Positions 1,216 through 10,492 of a stretch of 35,726 nt of DNA are shown one piece after another; positions within the stretch are counted from its first letter, which is position 1; the number at the start of each line of letters is the position of its first letter. The DNA comes from a virus. The notes below the pieces were generated by a model. It saw only the letters and a list, made by a program, of their open reading frames with translations. It was not told the DNA's origin and ran no database searches. The DNA is taken from positions 1-35,726 of IMG/VR virus record IMGVR_UViG_3300046796_000846. One strand, given 5' to 3'. The position numbers and the translations under genes were made by a program.

Positions 1216-3297
<2,082 letters not shown>

Positions 3298-3307
<10 letters not shown>

Positions 3308-3738
3308 ACACGGACGCGCCTGCGAGCGACTGGACGTTCCGCACGCAGGTCCACTTCAAGGCCGCCGCGAAGGGACGCAGGAGGATGGTCGAGGGCGCGG
3401 TCCCCACGCCGACGCCCGTCGTCTCGGGCCGCGTCCCGCGGATCGCGCGGCTCGTTGCGCTGGCGCACCGCTTCGCGGCGCTGATCGAGTCCGGCGACGT
3501 CCGCGACTACGCCGACGTCGCGCGGCTCGCGGGAGTCAGCAGAGCCCGCGTCTCGCAGATCGCGTCCCTCGCGATGCTCGCGCCCGACATCCAAGAGCAG
3601 CTCCTCGACTTGCCGCGGACGCTGCACGGCCCCGACGCGGTCCTTGAAACGGACGTCCGCCCGATCGCGGCGGTGCCCGAGTGGTCGAAGCAGCGCACGA
3701 TGTGGTGTCGGCTCGCGCAACATGTGCGGACTGCGTGA
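3298..3738 (+). CDS. ParB-like helix-turn-helix protein of the recombinase cassette
   Basis: A 146-residue DNA-binding protein. The HTH lies at about residues 68-92 (YADVARLAGVSRARVSQI), followed by an LAPDIQEQLLDLP segment and a C-terminal RPIAAVPEWxKQRxMW signature, a combination often seen right after serine recombinases. I chose the ATG at 3298 because GGAAGGAG sits about eight bases upstream; an in-frame ATG at 3304 is the alternative. The gene overlaps the recombinase end by 10 bases. It may regulate the recombinase or help direct recombination. It is also the nearest thing to a regulator in the integration cassette, although it does not look like a CI-type repressor. Confidence 0.8.
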
Positions 3739-4143: not shown

Positions 4144-4938
4144 ATGGGTAACAGCCACCTCGCGAATGGACTGCCGAAGACGCGCAACTGGCGCGAGGTA
4201 GTCAATCTCGTCGCGAGCAGCGCCGACGCGTCTCAGGTCGCCGCGGCGACACTCGACGCGTCCCTCCAAGGACTCCGCGTCGGCGCCGAGGATCCTGCGC
4301 TGCTGCACGCCGTCTCGCTGCTCTTCAAGATTCCCCTCGCGGCGAAGACGGAGGACTTCGTCGATGCCCTTCGCGACGCGGGTCTCGACGTCGGCCGACG
4401 GCCGACGCTGTTCGACATCACGGCCGCATTCACCGACGCCGTGGATCGTGCGCAGGCGAAGGTCGGCGGGAAGACGGACCTCGGGGAGATGGCTCAACTC
4501 GCTGCGGTCGAGACCATCGAGGGGCTGGTTGGAGAGCGGACCCGCAGCCTGTTCGGCACGACGCCCGAGGATGTCCAGAGGACGTTCGAGAAGTTCGGGA
4601 CGACGGCCCAGATGGGCGGCCTCATGCGCGAGTTCTTCTCGCGCTTCACGCGCCGATACCTGACGAACTTCCTCTCGCGCGAAGTCTCCAACCTCGTCGG
4701 CCAGTCCACGCCTGACCAGCAGCGGCCTTTCGCGAACATCCATGACCACGCAGAGTTCAACCGCGCAATCGAGACGCACTGCCGCGAGGCGAGCGCGATC
4801 GTCGAACGGTTCGCGGGCGAGTGGTTCTCGAAGACGAACTACGAGCAGAACGGCATACCGCGCGAGCTGGTGGCGCGGTTCGTTCCATTCGCCCTCAAGA
4901 AGCTCCGCAAGGAGTTCGAGCGGCGGGCCACGGCATGA
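4144..4938 (+). CDS. QatB-like candidate partner of a QueC-like enzyme
   Basis: A 264-residue, mostly helical protein without membrane segments. It starts Met-Gly-Asn-Ser, so methionine aminopeptidase should expose an N-terminal glycine. The C-terminal third (about residues 165-262: FFSRFTRRYLTNFLSRE, then FNRAIETHCREASAIVERFAGEW, then FALKKLRKE) resembles, from memory, the tail of QatB proteins of the QatABCD anti-phage system. Its stop overlaps the start of the QueC-like gene in an ATGA, so the two are translationally coupled. QueC-like enzymes of some defence systems attach a deazaguanine to the N-terminal glycine of a partner; this protein is a good candidate acceptor, by inference. No QatA ATPase or QatD nuclease gene is nearby. 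Codon use looks less GC-extreme than in the phage structural genes. Confidence 0.65.
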   Translation: MGNSHLANGLPKTRNWREVVNLVASSADASQVAAATLDASLQGLRVGAEDPALLHAVSLLFKIPLAAKTEDFVDALRDAGLDVGRRPTLFDITAAFTDAVDRAQAKVGGKTDLGEMAQLAAVETIEGLVGERTRSLFGTTPEDVQRTFEKFGTTAQMGGLMREFFSRFTRRYLTNFLSREVSNLVGQSTPDQQRPFANIHDHAEFNRAIETHCREASAIVERFAGEWFSKTNYEQNGIPRELVARFVPFALKKLRKEFERRATA

Positions 4939-7010
4939 AGGAGCCGCGCACCGTTCTCTGCGGCGGCGTGCAGGCCCCTCCGGGGGCCGCCTCGGAGGCC
5001 GACCCGATTCGACTCGACCGTCCCGGAAGCGGCGGCAACGTCAACCTGAGCATCTTCGACATCAGCCGGAAGCAAGTGCAACTCCCCGACGCGGTCCTCG
5101 ACCTGCTCGACCTCGCCGCGTACGTGTACTGCGCCGACCAGGCCGTATCTCGCGGCGGCTCCGGAGTCCGCGACATGGGCGCCGGCTGGCGGCGGAGATT
5201 CGCCTTTCACGTTCCGGTGCGCCAACTCGATCTGTGGTCGTCGGCGGAGGTGCTCGGCGCGTTGACGGACGTCCTCGGATTCCTCTCCGAGGACGAGTAC
5301 GAGTTCCACTTCTCGAAGCTCACGGGAACCTCGCGGGCGGACCAGTACTTCGACTTCGCCTCGCAGACGGCCACGCCGACGGACGCCGAAGAGGTGCTTC
5401 TCTTCTCGGGCGGTCTCGACTCCCTCGCGGGCGCGCTGCATGAGGTCGTGGGGCGTGGTCGACGCGCCGTGCTCGTCAGCCACCGCTCGTCTCCGCGGGT
5501 CGATCCTCGACAGAAGGGACTCGCGGCGCGCGTGGCGCAACTCGCCGTCCGCGGCCGCGCGATGCACGTTCCGGTCTGGGCCAACAAGGAGGAGGCGATC
5601 ACTCGCGACTTCACCCAGCGAAGTCGGTCCTTCCTCTTCGCGTCCCTCGGCGTCGCCGTCGCCTCCGTGTTCGGACTTCGGCGCATCCGCTTCTACGAGA
5701 ACGGCGTCACGTCGATCAACTTGCCGATCTCCGAGCAGATTCTCGGTTCGCGTGCGACGCGGACGACGCACCCCAAGACGCTCCTCGGATTCGCGAAGCT
5801 CTTCCGCGTCGTGCTGGGCCACGCCTTCGAGGTTCAGAACCCCTTCCTTTGGAAGACCAAGGCGGACATCGTCACGGTCGCCGCGCGGCACGGCGCGGAC
5901 CTGATCCGGGACACCGTGAGTTGCAGCCGGGAGAGGAAGCGTTCATCGGACAAGCCGCATTGCGGGAACTGCTCGCAGTGCATCGACCGGCGGTTCGCCA
6001 TTCTCGCGGCCGGGTGCGCGCAACGCGATCCCGGTGAACTCTACGGAACGGATTTGTTCAGTGAAGGGCGCGAGTCGATCAAGGATCGAACGATGCTCCA
6101 GTCGTACGTCGGCACCGCCATCGACATCGACGGCATGGCCGACGAGGCGTTCCTCCGCCGCTTCGGCGGCGAAATCAGCCGCGTGGTGAAGTGCGTCCCC
6201 GGTGAGTCGGCCGACAGGGCCGCGGGGCACGTGCTCGAACTCTACAAACGCCATGCACACGGAATCCGAGAGGTCGTCGAGGACCAAGTCCGAGACCACG
6301 TGTCGGACTTGGTGAGCGGAACGCTCTCGAAGGACTCCCTCGTGGTCCTTTCCCTCCAAAAGCAGTTTCGCGCAGAGGAAGCCGCGAAAGCTGCGCAGCC
6401 AACATGGGTCCGCGACCGTGACCTTGGGACGTGGACCATCACCTACGCTGAGAAGTCCATCACGCCCGCGCACTCGGTCGGGTTGGAGTACATCGGACGT
6501 CTCCTGGCTAGGCCGAACACCGACGTCGGGTGCGTGGCGCTCCGACAACTCGTCGCCGAGACATCGCGCGAGCCAGCGGCAGAGGCGTCATCCCGCGGAC
6601 GCGAGCGCGGGGGGCAGGTCGATGCCGACGAGGGCCTCGACAACACAGGCACCGCGATCCCCGCTACGGACAGGACGACGATCGAGGAGTGCAAGGAGCG
6701 GCTGCTTGCGCTGGTCGAAGAACGGCGCGAAGCGGAATCGAGCAACGACGCAGTCGAGCTTGCTCGCATCGACACGGAACGCGAGAAGATTGCGAAGTAT
6801 CTGAAGAGCGTGACCGGCCGACGCGGGAAGATCCGCAACGTCGACCGCGACGAGAGACGGGCGCGCCAGAGCGTCGGCAAGGCGATCGAGCGGAGCATCT
6901 CCCTGATCGAGAAGGCTCACGAAGCCCTCGGGCGCCACCTCCGCAACACGGTGAAGATCAACGGCGTCTGCGTGTACGAGCCCGACGGCACCGTCGTCTG
7001 GCGGACGTAG
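4935..7010 (+). CDS. QueC-like PP-loop protein with unusual C-terminal module
   Basis: A 691-residue protein; ordinary QueC is about 220-240 residues. Residues 155-355 hold a QueC-like N-type ATP pyrophosphatase domain: the PP-loop is SGGLDS (158-163), and zinc ligands are Cys330, Cys343, Cys346 and Cys349 in the family spacing C-x12-C-x2-C-x2-C. The N-terminal 150 residues are a lead domain I do not recognise. Residues 499-690 match a tail I know from large ATPase-type and LuxR-type regulators: GxWTITY, GLEYIGRLLARP, a Glu/Arg-rich coiled coil, then ALGRHLRNTVKINGVCVYEPD. The active-site motifs are intact. Queuosine synthesis is unlikely because no other queuosine gene is present; a defence role with the upstream gene is inferred. 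The ATG at 4935 overlaps the previous stop. Confidence 0.8.
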   Translation: MKEPRTVLCGGVQAPPGAASEADPIRLDRPGSGGNVNLSIFDISRKQVQLPDAVLDLLDLAAYVYCADQAVSRGGSGVRDMGAGWRRRFAFHVPVRQLDLWSSAEVLGALTDVLGFLSEDEYEFHFSKLTGTSRADQYFDFASQTATPTDAEEVLLFSGGLDSLAGALHEVVGRGRRAVLVSHRSSPRVDPRQKGLAARVAQLAVRGRAMHVPVWANKEEAITRDFTQRSRSFLFASLGVAVASVFGLRRIRFYENGVTSINLPISEQILGSRATRTTHPKTLLGFAKLFRVVLGHAFEVQNPFLWKTKADIVTVAARHGADLIRDTVSCSRERKRSSDKPHCGNCSQCIDRRFAILAAGCAQRDPGELYGTDLFSEGRESIKDRTMLQSYVGTAIDIDGMADEAFLRRFGGEISRVVKCVPGESADRAAGHVLELYKRHAHGIREVVEDQVRDHVSDLVSGTLSKDSLVVLSLQKQFRAEEAAKAAQPTWVRDRDLGTWTITYAEKSITPAHSVGLEYIGRLLARPNTDVGCVALRQLVAETSREPAAEASSRGRERGGQVDADEGLDNTGTAIPATDRTTIEECKERLLALVEERREAESSNDAVELARIDTEREKIAKYLKSVTGRRGKIRNVDRDERRARQSVGKAIERSISLIEKAHEALGRHLRNTVKINGVCVYEPDGTVVWRT

Positions 7011-7490: not shown

Positions 7491-8108
7491 GTGCAGATCA
7501 GCGCGCCCTCCCATCTCGTCACCGACCACGACCTCGCGCTCGCGCGCCACCATTCGCTGGGCGCGGTGGGAAAGGCGGGCCTCCGCCGCGACGACGCGGA
7601 CGACCTGGCGCAGCAGGCCGCCCTCGAACTCTGCAACCGCATCGCACGGTTCGACCCGCAGCGCGGTCGTCGCGAGGCCTTCGTCGTCGCCGTGGCGCGC
7701 AACGCGACGGCGCGCGTCATCGAGGAGAGGTCGGCGGCGCGGCGCGACTGGCGGCGGTGCCGCGCGTCGTTGCAGGACGAGATCGCGACCGCGGCCGGCG
7801 CGGCCGTCCCGCGCGCCGACACAATCGACGACGACGACCATGCTCGCCGGACGCGTGGCGCCCGACTGAGTTCGGCTGAACGCGACGACATGCGGCTCGA
7901 CGTACAAGCCGTCGTCGATCGCATGCCCGCCGAACTTCGCGCCGTGTGCGCCGCGCTGTTGCGGCTCGGCCCCTCCGACGCCGCCCGATCCCTCGGACTC
8001 CCGAGGGGCACGTTCTTCGACATCACCCGGCGCGTCCGCGCCCACTTCGAAGCGGCCGGTCTCGACGCCTACGTCGCCGCCGCTGCTCCTGCCGGAGGCC
8101 GCCGATGA
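7491..8108 (+). CDS. ECF-like sigma-70 family factor
   Basis: The 205-residue product has sigma region 2 at about residues 15-88, with the DADDLAQQAALELCNRIARF helix and the AFVVAVARNATARVIEE segment expected for core RNA polymerase and -10 contacts. Region 4 at about 139-190 has an HTH reading PSDAARSLGLPRGTFFDITR, the -35 reader. There is no region 1 or 3, as in ECF sigmas. A phage-encoded sigma placed with early replication genes fits a switch to late transcription. The 31-bp elements before the late blocks carry a GAAC-type upstream box typical of ECF promoters, so this protein is the natural candidate to read them. The GTG start at 7491 has only a weak ribosome-binding site. The end overlaps the primase start. 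Confidence 0.75.
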   Translation: MQISAPSHLVTDHDLALARHHSLGAVGKAGLRRDDADDLAQQAALELCNRIARFDPQRGRREAFVVAVARNATARVIEERSAARRDWRRCRASLQDEIATAAGAAVPRADTIDDDDHARRTRGARLSSAERDDMRLDVQAVVDRMPAELRAVCAALLRLGPSDAARSLGLPRGTFFDITRRVRAHFEAAGLDAYVAAAAPAGGRR

Positions 8109-10492
8109 ACGCCGACTTCGACCCCGCGCTCGTGCGCGAGAACTTCCCCGCCGAACTCCGTGGTCTGCCGCAGTGGCTCGTCTGGCGGCTGGAGCAGGTC
8201 CCCGGCAAGGACAAGCCGACGAAGATCCCCTACTCGCGCCGAGGGTCGAAGGCGAGCAGCACGAACGCGAAGACGTGGTGCTCGTTCGACGAGGCGCTCA
8301 CGGCGCAGGCGGCCGGGCGCTACGACGGCGTCGGCTTCGTCTTCGCCGACGGCGTGTACACGGGCATCGACCTCGACCATTGCCGCGACGCGGCGACGGG
8401 AGCGATCGACCCGTGGGCGAAGGCGATCCTCGACAAGGTCTCCAGCTACTCGGAGGCGAGTCCGTCCGGCACCGGCGTCCACCTGATCGTCCGGGCGACG
8501 CTTCCTGGACCGGGGCGAAACAAGCGCCGCCTCAACATCCCGGGGGCTCACCCGGAAGCAGCGATCGAGATGTACGACCGCGGCCGGTACTTCACCGCCA
8601 CGGGCGACCGCCTGATCGAGTACCCGCCGGAAATCGAGAACCGCCAGGACGCAGTGACGGCGCTGTACGCGCGCATCGAGTCCGCGCCGCCGAAGGAGAA
8701 GAAGTCGGCGAAGCCGTCGTCCCGGCCGCCCGACATCTCCGACACGCAGATCGTCGAGAAGGCGATGGCCGCGAAGAACGGCGACGCGTTCCGTCGCCTG
8801 TGGGGCGGCGACACGAGCGGCCACGGCGGCGACGACTCCGCGGCCGACCTCGCTCTCTGCGACTACCTCGCGTTCTGGTGCGGGCCCGACGTCGCGCGGA
8901 TCGACCGGTTGGTCCGGCAGTCGGGGCTCTATCGCGAGAAGTGGGACCGCGAGGACTACCGCGACCGGACGATCGCGAAGGCGCTGGAGGGGCGGACCGA
9001 GTTCTACGGCGTCCCGCGCGCGACGGCCCCGTCGAGCACGCCCGCGGGCGAGTCCGAGGACCGCGACGTCGTCGACGACGAATCGGACGCCGACGCCGCG
9101 CCGAGTTCCATTCCGACACCGCGCCGGGACGTCGATCTCAAGTTCCAGCCGCAGACCGACGCCGGCGCCGCCGAGAGAATCGCGGCGCTCTTCGGCGAGC
9201 ACGTCCGTCACGTCGAGGGGTTCGGCTACTTCCTCTGGGTCGGCAAGCGGTGGCAGCGGGACCGGCACGGCGTCCTGACCCAGTGCGTGATCGTCGCCGC
9301 GCGGGAGACCTACCGGCAGGCGGCCGACCTCGCCGAGGACCGCAAGAAGCCGCTGTCGGACTACGCCAGGAAGTGCGAGCAGGAGCCGCGCATCCGCGGA
9401 ATCCTGAAGATCCTCGCGACGATGCCGGAGATCGCGCTCGACGTCGCCGCGCTCGACGCGGACCCCGACCTCCTGAACGTCGACAACGGCATCGTCCACC
9501 TGCCGACGAAGACGCTGCGGCCGCACGACCCGAAGGCGTACTGCACGAAGCTCGCGCCCGTCGCGTACCGCCCGGACGCGCCGGCGCCGACATGGATCGA
9601 GTTCCAGAAGCAGGTCGCGTGCAACGACGCCGAACTCGTCGCGTTCAAGCAGCGGGCATACGGCTACTCGTCGACGGGCCAGACGAGGGAGCAGTGCGTC
9701 TTCATCGGCCACGGCAAGGGCAGCAACGGCAAGACGACCGAGAGCAACGCCGTGCGATTCGTCCTCGGCGACTACGTGAAGAACGCCGACTTCGCGACGT
9801 TCACGAGCGGCAAGCGCCACGGCGGCCCGCGCTCCGACGTCGTGCGTCTCGTCGGCGCGCGGCTCGTCACCGCGCTCGAGGGCGACGAGGGCCAGCATCT
9901 CGACGAAGCGTTCTTGAAGGGCATCACCGGCAACGACCCGCAGACGGCGCGCGACATGTACGAGTCGGAGATCGAGTTCGTCCCGGTGCTGAAGCCGTGG
10001 CTCTTCTCGAACTTCACGCCGCGGATCAAGGGGACCGACGAGGGCATCTGGCGGCGCATCCGCCTGATCCCGTACCTCGCGCACTTCCCGAAGGACAAGC
10101 AGGACAAGAAGCTCCCCGAGAAGCTCCGCGCCGAGGCCGAGGGCATCCTCGCCTGGATCGTCGAGGGCGCGTTCCAGTGGTACGCGAAGGGCCTGCCGGA
10201 CGTCTCGTCCGTCGACGCCGCGACGAAGGACTTCCGCGAGAGCCAGGACGCCCTCGGGCAGTTCATCGAAGAGCGATGCGTGCAGCGGACCGACGCCGAC
10301 GTCGGCTCTGCCGCGCTCTACAAGGCCTACCGCGCGTGGTCGGAGTCGGCCGGCGAGGAGGCGGTGCGCGACCGCGAGTTCAAGGCGCTGCTGATCGACC
10401 TGGGGTACGTCTGGAAGAAGGAGAACGACGGGGCGAAGTGGTTCGGTCTCGAACTGAAGGGCCTCTTCCAGAACCAGTCGGTGACGGCATGA
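8105..10492 (+). CDS. AEP primase-polymerase / SF3 helicase
   Basis: A 795-residue replication protein. The N-terminal primase-polymerase domain shows archaeo-eukaryotic primase motifs GIDLD (residues 87-91, metal-binding aspartates) and SGTGVH (121-126). A linker rich in Asp/Pro lies near residues 310-340. The C-terminal D5/P4-type superfamily 3 helicase has Walker A GHGKGSNGKTT at about 535-545, and downstream KPWLFSNFTPRIKG and EGIWRRIRLIPY segments resembling motif C and the arginine-finger region. It should prime and unwind phage DNA from the origin. The ATG at 8105 overlaps the sigma-factor stop (ATGA), and its own stop overlaps the next start. Confidence 0.93.
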   Translation: MNADFDPALVRENFPAELRGLPQWLVWRLEQVPGKDKPTKIPYSRRGSKASSTNAKTWCSFDEALTAQAAGRYDGVGFVFADGVYTGIDLDHCRDAATGAIDPWAKAILDKVSSYSEASPSGTGVHLIVRATLPGPGRNKRRLNIPGAHPEAAIEMYDRGRYFTATGDRLIEYPPEIENRQDAVTALYARIESAPPKEKKSAKPSSRPPDISDTQIVEKAMAAKNGDAFRRLWGGDTSGHGGDDSAADLALCDYLAFWCGPDVARIDRLVRQSGLYREKWDREDYRDRTIAKALEGRTEFYGVPRATAPSSTPAGESEDRDVVDDESDADAAPSSIPTPRRDVDLKFQPQTDAGAAERIAALFGEHVRHVEGFGYFLWVGKRWQRDRHGVLTQCVIVAARETYRQAADLAEDRKKPLSDYARKCEQEPRIRGILKILATMPEIALDVAALDADPDLLNVDNGIVHLPTKTLRPHDPKAYCTKLAPVAYRPDAPAPTWIEFQKQVACNDAELVAFKQRAYGYSSTGQTREQCVFIGHGKGSNGKTTESNAVRFVLGDYVKNADFATFTSGKRHGGPRSDVVRLVGARLVTALEGDEGQHLDEAFLKGITGNDPQTARDMYESEIEFVPVLKPWLFSNFTPRIKGTDEGIWRRIRLIPYLAHFPKDKQDKKLPEKLRAEAEGILAWIVEGAFQWYAKGLPDVSSVDAATKDFRESQDALGQFIEERCVQRTDADVGSAALYKAYRAWSESAGEEAVRDREFKALLIDLGYVWKKENDGAKWFGLELKGLFQNQSVTA

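What the first reader, a model, noticed from the sequence alone, without database searches (positions are those of the whole stretch)
6429..7010. QueC-like domain fused to the C-terminal module of ATPase/LuxR-type regulators
Residues 499-690 follow the order GxWTITY, GLEYIGRLLARP, coiled coil, then LGRHLRNTVKINGVCVYEPD. I know this order from the C-termini of large AAA/NB-ARC-like and LuxR-type regulators, not from QueC proteins. It suggests that the enzyme also senses or binds something, perhaps DNA or a signalling partner, and could be the trigger or effector arm of the system.
Basis: partly seen in the sequence, partly recalled or inferred. Interest (0 to 1): 0.75.

Follow-up and report, generated by a model that had tools for sequence, protein, structure and literature searches.

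The report
QatC-like enzyme with swappable DNA-binding tail
A prophage carries a two-gene relative of the Qat anti-phage system whose protein-modifying enzyme has an extra DNA-binding-type tail; relatives carry other DNA-binding domains or a nuclease in the same spot, which suggests how such two-gene systems might find their target.

Summary
The gene at 4935-7010 (691 aa) is a QatC-like QueC-family enzyme, and residues ~490-691 are an extra module beyond the end of canonical QatC. The LuxR part was not seen. Its predicted structure is an OmpR/PhoB-type winged helix with a coiled-coil hairpin between helices 2 and 3 (Z 9.0).

The fusion is not unique. About 100 bacterial and prophage loci share it, and 72 carry a plain winged helix there. 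Others have an OmpR Trans_reg_C domain, HTH-like sequences, or (Leptospira) a DpnII/MboI-type nuclease. Nearly all loci have an upstream partner starting MG(H), whose model matches QatB (Z 12.0, next 6.1). QatA and QatD are absent, and 99 of 143 testable loci have a serine integrase upstream.

Best explanation: a two-gene QatB/QatC-like prophage defence cassette whose tail ties the complex to nucleic acid, replacing QatA and QatD in cis. Homology, fold, operon and tail swapping are shown; DNA binding, modification and defence are inferred. New variant of a known kind.

The parts
4144..4938 (+). QatB-like partner (264 aa, starts MGNS; MGH in nearly all relatives), overlaps the next gene by 4 nt
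   Evidence: Homologue in 181 of 188 loci by tblastn. M1 and G2 invariant in 22 diverse members. AF2 model (pLDDT 84.6) matches QatB 9y01_A at Z 12.0, 201 residues, 4.0 A; next best Z 6.1. Profile vs QatB 57.6%, E 1e-4; unrelated controls 0.4% and 0.2%.
4935..7010 (+). QatC-like gene (691 aa) with added C-terminal module
   Evidence: PADLOC QatC 2.5e-56; NCBIfam QatC 2.9e-60, 204 bits, below the 280 cutoff; PDB QatC 9vlk 1.2e-30.
5067..6032 (+). Residues 45-366: QatC N-terminal extension and QueC core; YCADQ 5127, SGGLDS 5406, QRSRSF 5616, ENG 5697, TRTTHP 5757, CGNCSQCIDRR 5961
   Evidence: invariant or nearly so in the family.
6033..6359 (+). Residues 367-475: C-terminal extension shared with canonical QatC (contacts QatB in the solved QatBC complex)
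   Evidence: Canonical QatC aligns to residues 4-449 (hhalign 100%, 2.9e-49); role of the extension from PMC13279940.
6402..7007 (+). Residues 490-691: added C-terminal module, coiled-coil winged helix shared with STAND/TPR ATPases
6390..6569 (+). Tail subregion: beta strands, helix 1 and helix 2 of the winged helix (model residues 1-60)
   Evidence: secondary structure; alignments span model residues 2-205.
6672..6812 (+). Tail subregion: coiled-coil hairpin inserted between helix 2 and helix 3 (model residues 95-141)
6840..6989 (+). Tail subregion: helix 3 (recognition-helix position, DERRARQSVGKAIERS) and wing (model residues 151-200)
   Evidence: conserved arginines in helix 3.
1724..3307 (+). 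Large serine integrase upstream of the cassette (context)
   Evidence: same-family integrase upstream in 99 of 143 related loci with at least 3.5 kb upstream; Pfam Resolvase/Recombinase/Zn_ribbon_recom in homologues of related loci.
7491..8108 (+). Sigma-70-like protein downstream (context)
   Evidence: Pfam Sigma70_r2 1.9e-7; homologue within the fetched flanks of 27 related loci.

Best explanation
A compact, prophage-borne relative of the Qat anti-phage system, reduced to two overlapping genes. The QatC-like enzyme binds the QatB-like partner and performs an ATP-dependent modification at the partner's exposed N-terminal glycine (inferred from Qat and Cap9). The added C-terminal module is a coiled-coil winged helix that ties this complex to nucleic acid, or to a nucleoprotein partner, so that it acts on incoming DNA. 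It thus supplies in cis what the separate DNA-binding ATPase QatA and nuclease QatD supply in canonical qatABCD. Shown here: homology, predicted folds, conserved catalytic residues, operon, absence of QatA/QatD, tail swapping. Inferred: DNA binding, the modification, defence.
For: QatC identity with catalytic and zinc residues kept. Partner has the QatB fold and an invariant N-terminal MG. QatBC alone is sufficient for defence against some phages, QatB G2 is essential and QatA binds DNA (PMC13279940). QatA and QatD absent from nearly all loci. Tail homologous to STAND/TPR regulator C-termini, with a winged-helix fold. The same C-terminal slot holds other DNA-acting modules in relatives: Trans_reg_C, plain winged-helix-like tails, a DpnII-MboI nuclease. 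Position next to a serine integrase and beside HsdM, GmrSD or PLD-helicase genes in some genomes.
Against: No experiment on this family exists in the papers found. The shared fold gives no proof of DNA binding: helix 3 of the window carries only +2 net charge. In STAND proteins the same tail could serve oligomerisation or partner binding. Some tail types (L056/L072, L240) could not be assigned to a nucleic-acid fold. QatC chemistry is itself unresolved (PMC13279940).
Confidence: 0.5

Rival explanations
1. The tail is a transcription-regulator domain: the QatC-like protein also represses or activates its own operon or prophage genes.
For: Winged helix of OmpR/PhoB type; Trans_reg_C in L257/L258; the tail is otherwise known from C-termini of regulator-like ATPases.
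Against: Upstream inverted repeats are weak and not shown to exceed chance; no sigma-70-type promoter found; a nuclease in the same slot in L002 does not fit regulation.
Confidence: 0.17
2. The tail is mainly a protein-protein or oligomerisation module, as its coiled coil may be in STAND ATPases, and contacts a host sensor or a phage protein.
For: Long coiled-coil hairpin; shared with STAND ATPases, a class that usually senses and oligomerises (general knowledge); helix 3 weakly charged.
Against: Other identifiable occupants of the slot are DNA-binding folds without the coiled coil or a nuclease.
Confidence: 0.18
3. The cassette is not defence but a phage tool for taking over the host or countering host defence, by modifying its partner to act on host proteins or DNA.
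For: Carried by prophages; PHROGs files QueC-like proteins under moron / host takeover.
Against: Strong relation to Qat, a tested defence system; other copies lie beside HsdM, GmrSD and PLD-helicase genes.
Confidence: 0.1
4. The tail is a passive fusion without function in an ordinary QatC.
For: QatBC without any tail suffices for some defence (PMC13279940).
Against: Tail conserved across phyla with invariant W, H and W residues, and replaced by other complete domains rather than lost.
Confidence: 0.05

Closest known systems
qatABCD anti-phage system (QatB-QatC complex)
   Same: QatC core and extensions, SGGxDS, TRTTHP, Zn site; QatB-fold partner with N-terminal MG directly upstream
   Different: No QatA or QatD; partner begins MGH/MGN with a short N-terminus instead of MGTS with a 30-90 aa disordered tail; QatC is about 560-730 aa with an added C-terminal domain, against 431-465 aa
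Cap9 / type IV CBASS deazaguanylation
   Same: QueC-family enzyme with a protein partner bearing an N-terminal glycine
   Different: Active site has the QatC Thr-Thr in place of Tyr/Asp; no CD-NTase; partner unrelated to the CD-NTase
C-terminal module of actinobacterial and myxobacterial AAA_16/STAND-TPR regulators
   Same: Same residue order and inserted coiled coil (hhalign 100%, 6.5e-39 for the family)
   Different: Attached to a modification enzyme, with no ATPase or TPR sensor in the same protein
OmpR/PhoB winged-helix DNA-binding domains (NsrR, SaeR, AdeR, PhoB)
   Same: Fold, order of strands and helices, wing
   Different: No sequence match to Trans_reg_C; a coiled-coil hairpin of about 47 residues sits between helix 2 and helix 3

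Membership tests
QatC (NCBIfam NF041925 equivalog) | Score at or above curated cutoff (280 bits) | tested here: not met
   204.2 bits, E 2.9e-60: clear relative, outside the equivalog
QatC (QueC family cluster 2) | SGGxDS, catalytic D, RxRxxxF, ExG, HP with Thr-Thr, P(x)4TK, CGxCxxC...RR zinc site | tested here: met
   All present in the window and invariant or nearly so in the family; motif list from PMC13329287
qatABCD system | Four genes: KAP ATPase QatA, QatB, QatC, TatD nuclease QatD | tested here: not met
   No QatD hit and one weak QatA hit (L106) among the related loci and the window region, although some loci are cut short
QatB | QatB helical fold | tested here: met
   VIA Z 12.0 to 9y01_A, 201 residues, 4.0 A, next best 6.1; profile support weak (57.6%)
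QatB | N-terminal MGTS with long disordered tail | tested here: not met
   MGNS in the window, MGH in nearly all relatives; first helix begins at residue 14
N-terminal deazaguanylation (NDG) systems | Enzyme attaches a 7-deazaguanine to the partner's glycine | not testable with these tools
   Only the exposed Gly2 and the enzyme class are seen
STAND/AAA regulator C-terminal module | G.W..Y, GL..L..LL..P, coiled coil, ERAR..V, LGxHL, C.Y.PD..W in this order | tested here: met
OmpR/PhoB winged helix (fold) | N-terminal sheet, helices 1-3, wing | tested here: met
   Z 9.0 to 5dcm, 88 residues, 2.6 A; several others at Z 8.4-8.8. Foldseek alone gave no significant hit
OmpR/PhoB (Pfam Trans_reg_C) | Sequence match to PF00486 | tested here: not met
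   No hit for the window tail; met only by relatives L257 and L258
LuxR-type regulators | LuxR HTH in carriers of the tail | tested here: inconclusive
   Not found among the tail carriers scanned against Pfam; only a sample was scanned

The most novel reading that the evidence does not exclude
A previously unnamed, widespread family of prophage-borne two-gene systems in which a QatC-like enzyme carries an interchangeable C-terminal nucleic-acid module (several winged helices, HTH-like domains or a nuclease). Contact of that module with foreign DNA would trigger N-terminal modification of the QatB-like partner: a DNA-triggered protein-modification immunity with a polymorphic sensor or effector slot.
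Probability: 0.3. Interest if true: 0.8.

Novelty: new variant of a known kind. Interest (0 to 1): 0.64.

Why it matters
How QatB/QatC restrict phages, and what activates them, is an open question stated in the 2026 structural paper (PMC13279940), and QatC could not be reconstituted in vitro. This family is a natural simplification: two genes, with the candidate sensor or effector module fused to the enzyme and swapped between relatives. Deleting or exchanging the tail directly tests whether DNA contact is the missing activator. The papers found here do not describe QatC proteins with such tails, nor the MGH partner family, which had no significant hit in PADLOC, NCBIfam, Pfam or PDB sequence searches.

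Tried and rejected
Tail alone against viral contigs by peptide patterns: no relatives. Pfam, PADLOC, NCBIfam and PHROGs with the tail alone: nothing significant. Tail profile against PDB sequences: only coiled-coil look-alikes. Foldseek on both models: no significant hits; the VIA second look gave the informative matches. Common ancestry of the coiled-coil tail and the plain winged-helix tail by profile comparison: not demonstrable, even with the coil cut out, so only fold equivalence is claimed. The other tail groups did not join either; the Trans_reg_C tails match the plain winged helix only weakly (45.5%, E 2.2e-4). Autoregulation through an upstream operator: only weak inverted repeats, no sigma-70 promoter match. 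A tail-only alignment scan of viral contigs could not be run (no conserved stretch).

Full report
1. What is there. The window is a 35,726-bp IMG/VR virus record with 70% G+C. From left to right it holds a large serine integrase (1724-3307), a partner gene (4144-4938), the gene in question (4935-7010; the two overlap by 4 nt), a sigma-70-like gene (7491-8108) and a D5-type primase (8099-10492). This reads as a prophage or temperate phage.

2. The enzyme. Residues 45-366 match QatC: PADLOC 2.5e-56, NCBIfam 2.9e-60 but 204 bits against a cutoff of 280, solved QatC 9vlk at 1.2e-30. The catalytic residues of QatC are kept and are invariant or nearly so among relatives: D68, SGGLDS, QRSRSF, ENG, TRTTHP, P(x)4TK and the zinc site CGNCSQCIDRR (motif list from PMC13329287). 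The Thr-Thr pair that in QatC replaces the nucleobase-recognising Tyr/Asp of QueC and Cap9 (PMC13279940) is present. A profile of the family aligns with the whole of canonical QatC over residues 4-449 (hhalign 100%, 2.9e-49). Six canonical qatABCD loci fetched as controls have QatC of 431-465 residues, with no tail.

3. The partner. In 181 of 188 related loci tblastn finds a homologue of the partner. A start codon followed by Gly was located in 169, of which 165 read MGH; the window reads MGN. M1 and G2 are invariant in 22 diverse members. No sequence library names it. Its AlphaFold2 model (pLDDT 84.6) matches QatB of the solved QatBC complex at Z 12.0 over 201 residues and 4.0 A, with the next match at Z 6.1. 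The tool's own note warns that mostly helical models can reach similar best Z values, so the gap to the next match and the gene position matter. Profile comparison with QatB adds weak, collinear support (57.6%, E 1e-4, against 0.4% and 0.2% for QatC and QatD controls).

4. The tail. Residues 490-691 match the C-terminal ends of actinobacterial regulators by tblastn (Embleya E 1e-6), with the whole order of motifs conserved. A profile built only from QatC-like tails hits these actinobacterial regulators at 100-121 bits. The window tail alone against eight regulator C-termini gives 99.2% and E 1.2e-19; the tail family without the window gives 100% and E 6.5e-39. The carriers are AAA_16 or AAA_22 STAND-like ATPases with TPRs, TPR proteins, a DEAD/SF2 helicase and an APH/TCAD9 protein. 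In sampled genomes the module (QatC-like carriers included) occurs in 12 of 193 from the phylum of G001 (L050, Myxococcales) and 29 of 199 from that of G003 (L058, Zavarzinella). The predicted structure (pLDDT 82) is strands, helix 1, helix 2, a coiled-coil hairpin, helix 3 and a wing. The second-look aligner matches it to OmpR/PhoB-family DNA-binding domains, best Z 9.0 over 88 residues and 2.6 A; Foldseek itself found no significant match.

5. The slot is swappable. Among 125 proteins in the first set, 49 carry this tail (including two truncated at a contig end) and 67 a plain winged-helix-like tail ending GYR(L/I)N; six members carry others and three were left unclassified. A further 64 viral loci give 52 coiled-coil tails, 5 plain, 2 of a third type and 5 unassigned by profile. 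Two of those five, L257 and L258, carry Pfam Trans_reg_C above its cutoff. The Leptospira plasmid copy ends in a DpnII-MboI restriction-endonuclease domain (1.2e-9). On a tree of the cores, the plain tail forms one clade (SH-aLRT 95) and all tail types need 6 changes against 39 in shuffles. The window sits on a long branch, and its nearest cores L051 and L052 (51% identical by tblastn) carry a different tail, so its exact place is unsure.

6. Context. QatA and QatD homologues are absent from the fetched surroundings of the 124 related loci and from the window region, apart from one weak QatA hit; some loci are cut short, so absence in those is not proven. A serine integrase related to the window's lies upstream in 99 of 143 loci with enough sequence (Pfam). 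Elsewhere the neighbours include HsdM, GmrSD and an SNF2-PLD helicase. From general knowledge, this is a usual setting of prophage cargo and defence genes.

7. How it most likely works. In canonical Qat, QatB and QatC alone protect against some phages, QatB Gly2 and the QatC active site are essential, QatA binds DNA, and QatA/QatD affect the range (PMC13279940). The family here keeps exactly the QatBC pair and adds a module that is nucleic-acid-acting in most forms that could be identified. The simplest reading is that the tail brings the modification complex to DNA, or lets DNA contact switch it on. Shown: homology, predicted folds, conserved catalytic residues, operon, swapping. Inferred: the modification, DNA contact, protection. 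Rivals are autoregulation, oligomerisation or partner binding, and a phage takeover role.

8. Novelty. The membership tests file the enzyme as a relative of QatC outside the curated equivalog, and the system as a QatBC variant without QatA and QatD. The papers found do not mention such tails or the MGH partner, but only open-licence papers were searchable and only parts of the two Qat papers were read. I rate it a new variant of a known kind.

Noticed in passing
L002:5938-7803: QatC-like protein of Leptospira noguchii plasmid p1 ends in a DpnII-MboI restriction-endonuclease domain, next to an MGH partner; a natural enzyme-nuclease fusion.
   Followed up: partly
L183:547-3684 and L182:566-3667: The same coiled-coil winged-helix tail ends an SF2 DEAD helicase (with archaeal helicase domain 4) and an APH/TCAD9 protein, so the module is used well beyond STAND ATPases.
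   Followed up: partly
L051:4989-6305: An in-frame stop codon splits the core from a tail of the L052 type; either a broken gene or an assembly error.
   Followed up: no
window 3298-3738 (+): Small HTH-like protein right after the serine integrase, with a typical DNA-binding stretch (YADVARLAGVSRARVSQI).
   Followed up: no
L056, L072, L236, L240, L249: Further C-terminal tails of QatC-like proteins that match no known family; some look HTH-like by eye.
   Followed up: partly
L043:4-3348: PLD-like nuclease plus SNF2 helicase gene directly upstream of the partner gene in a viral contig, with a relative in L094; may be a companion defence gene.
   Followed up: no
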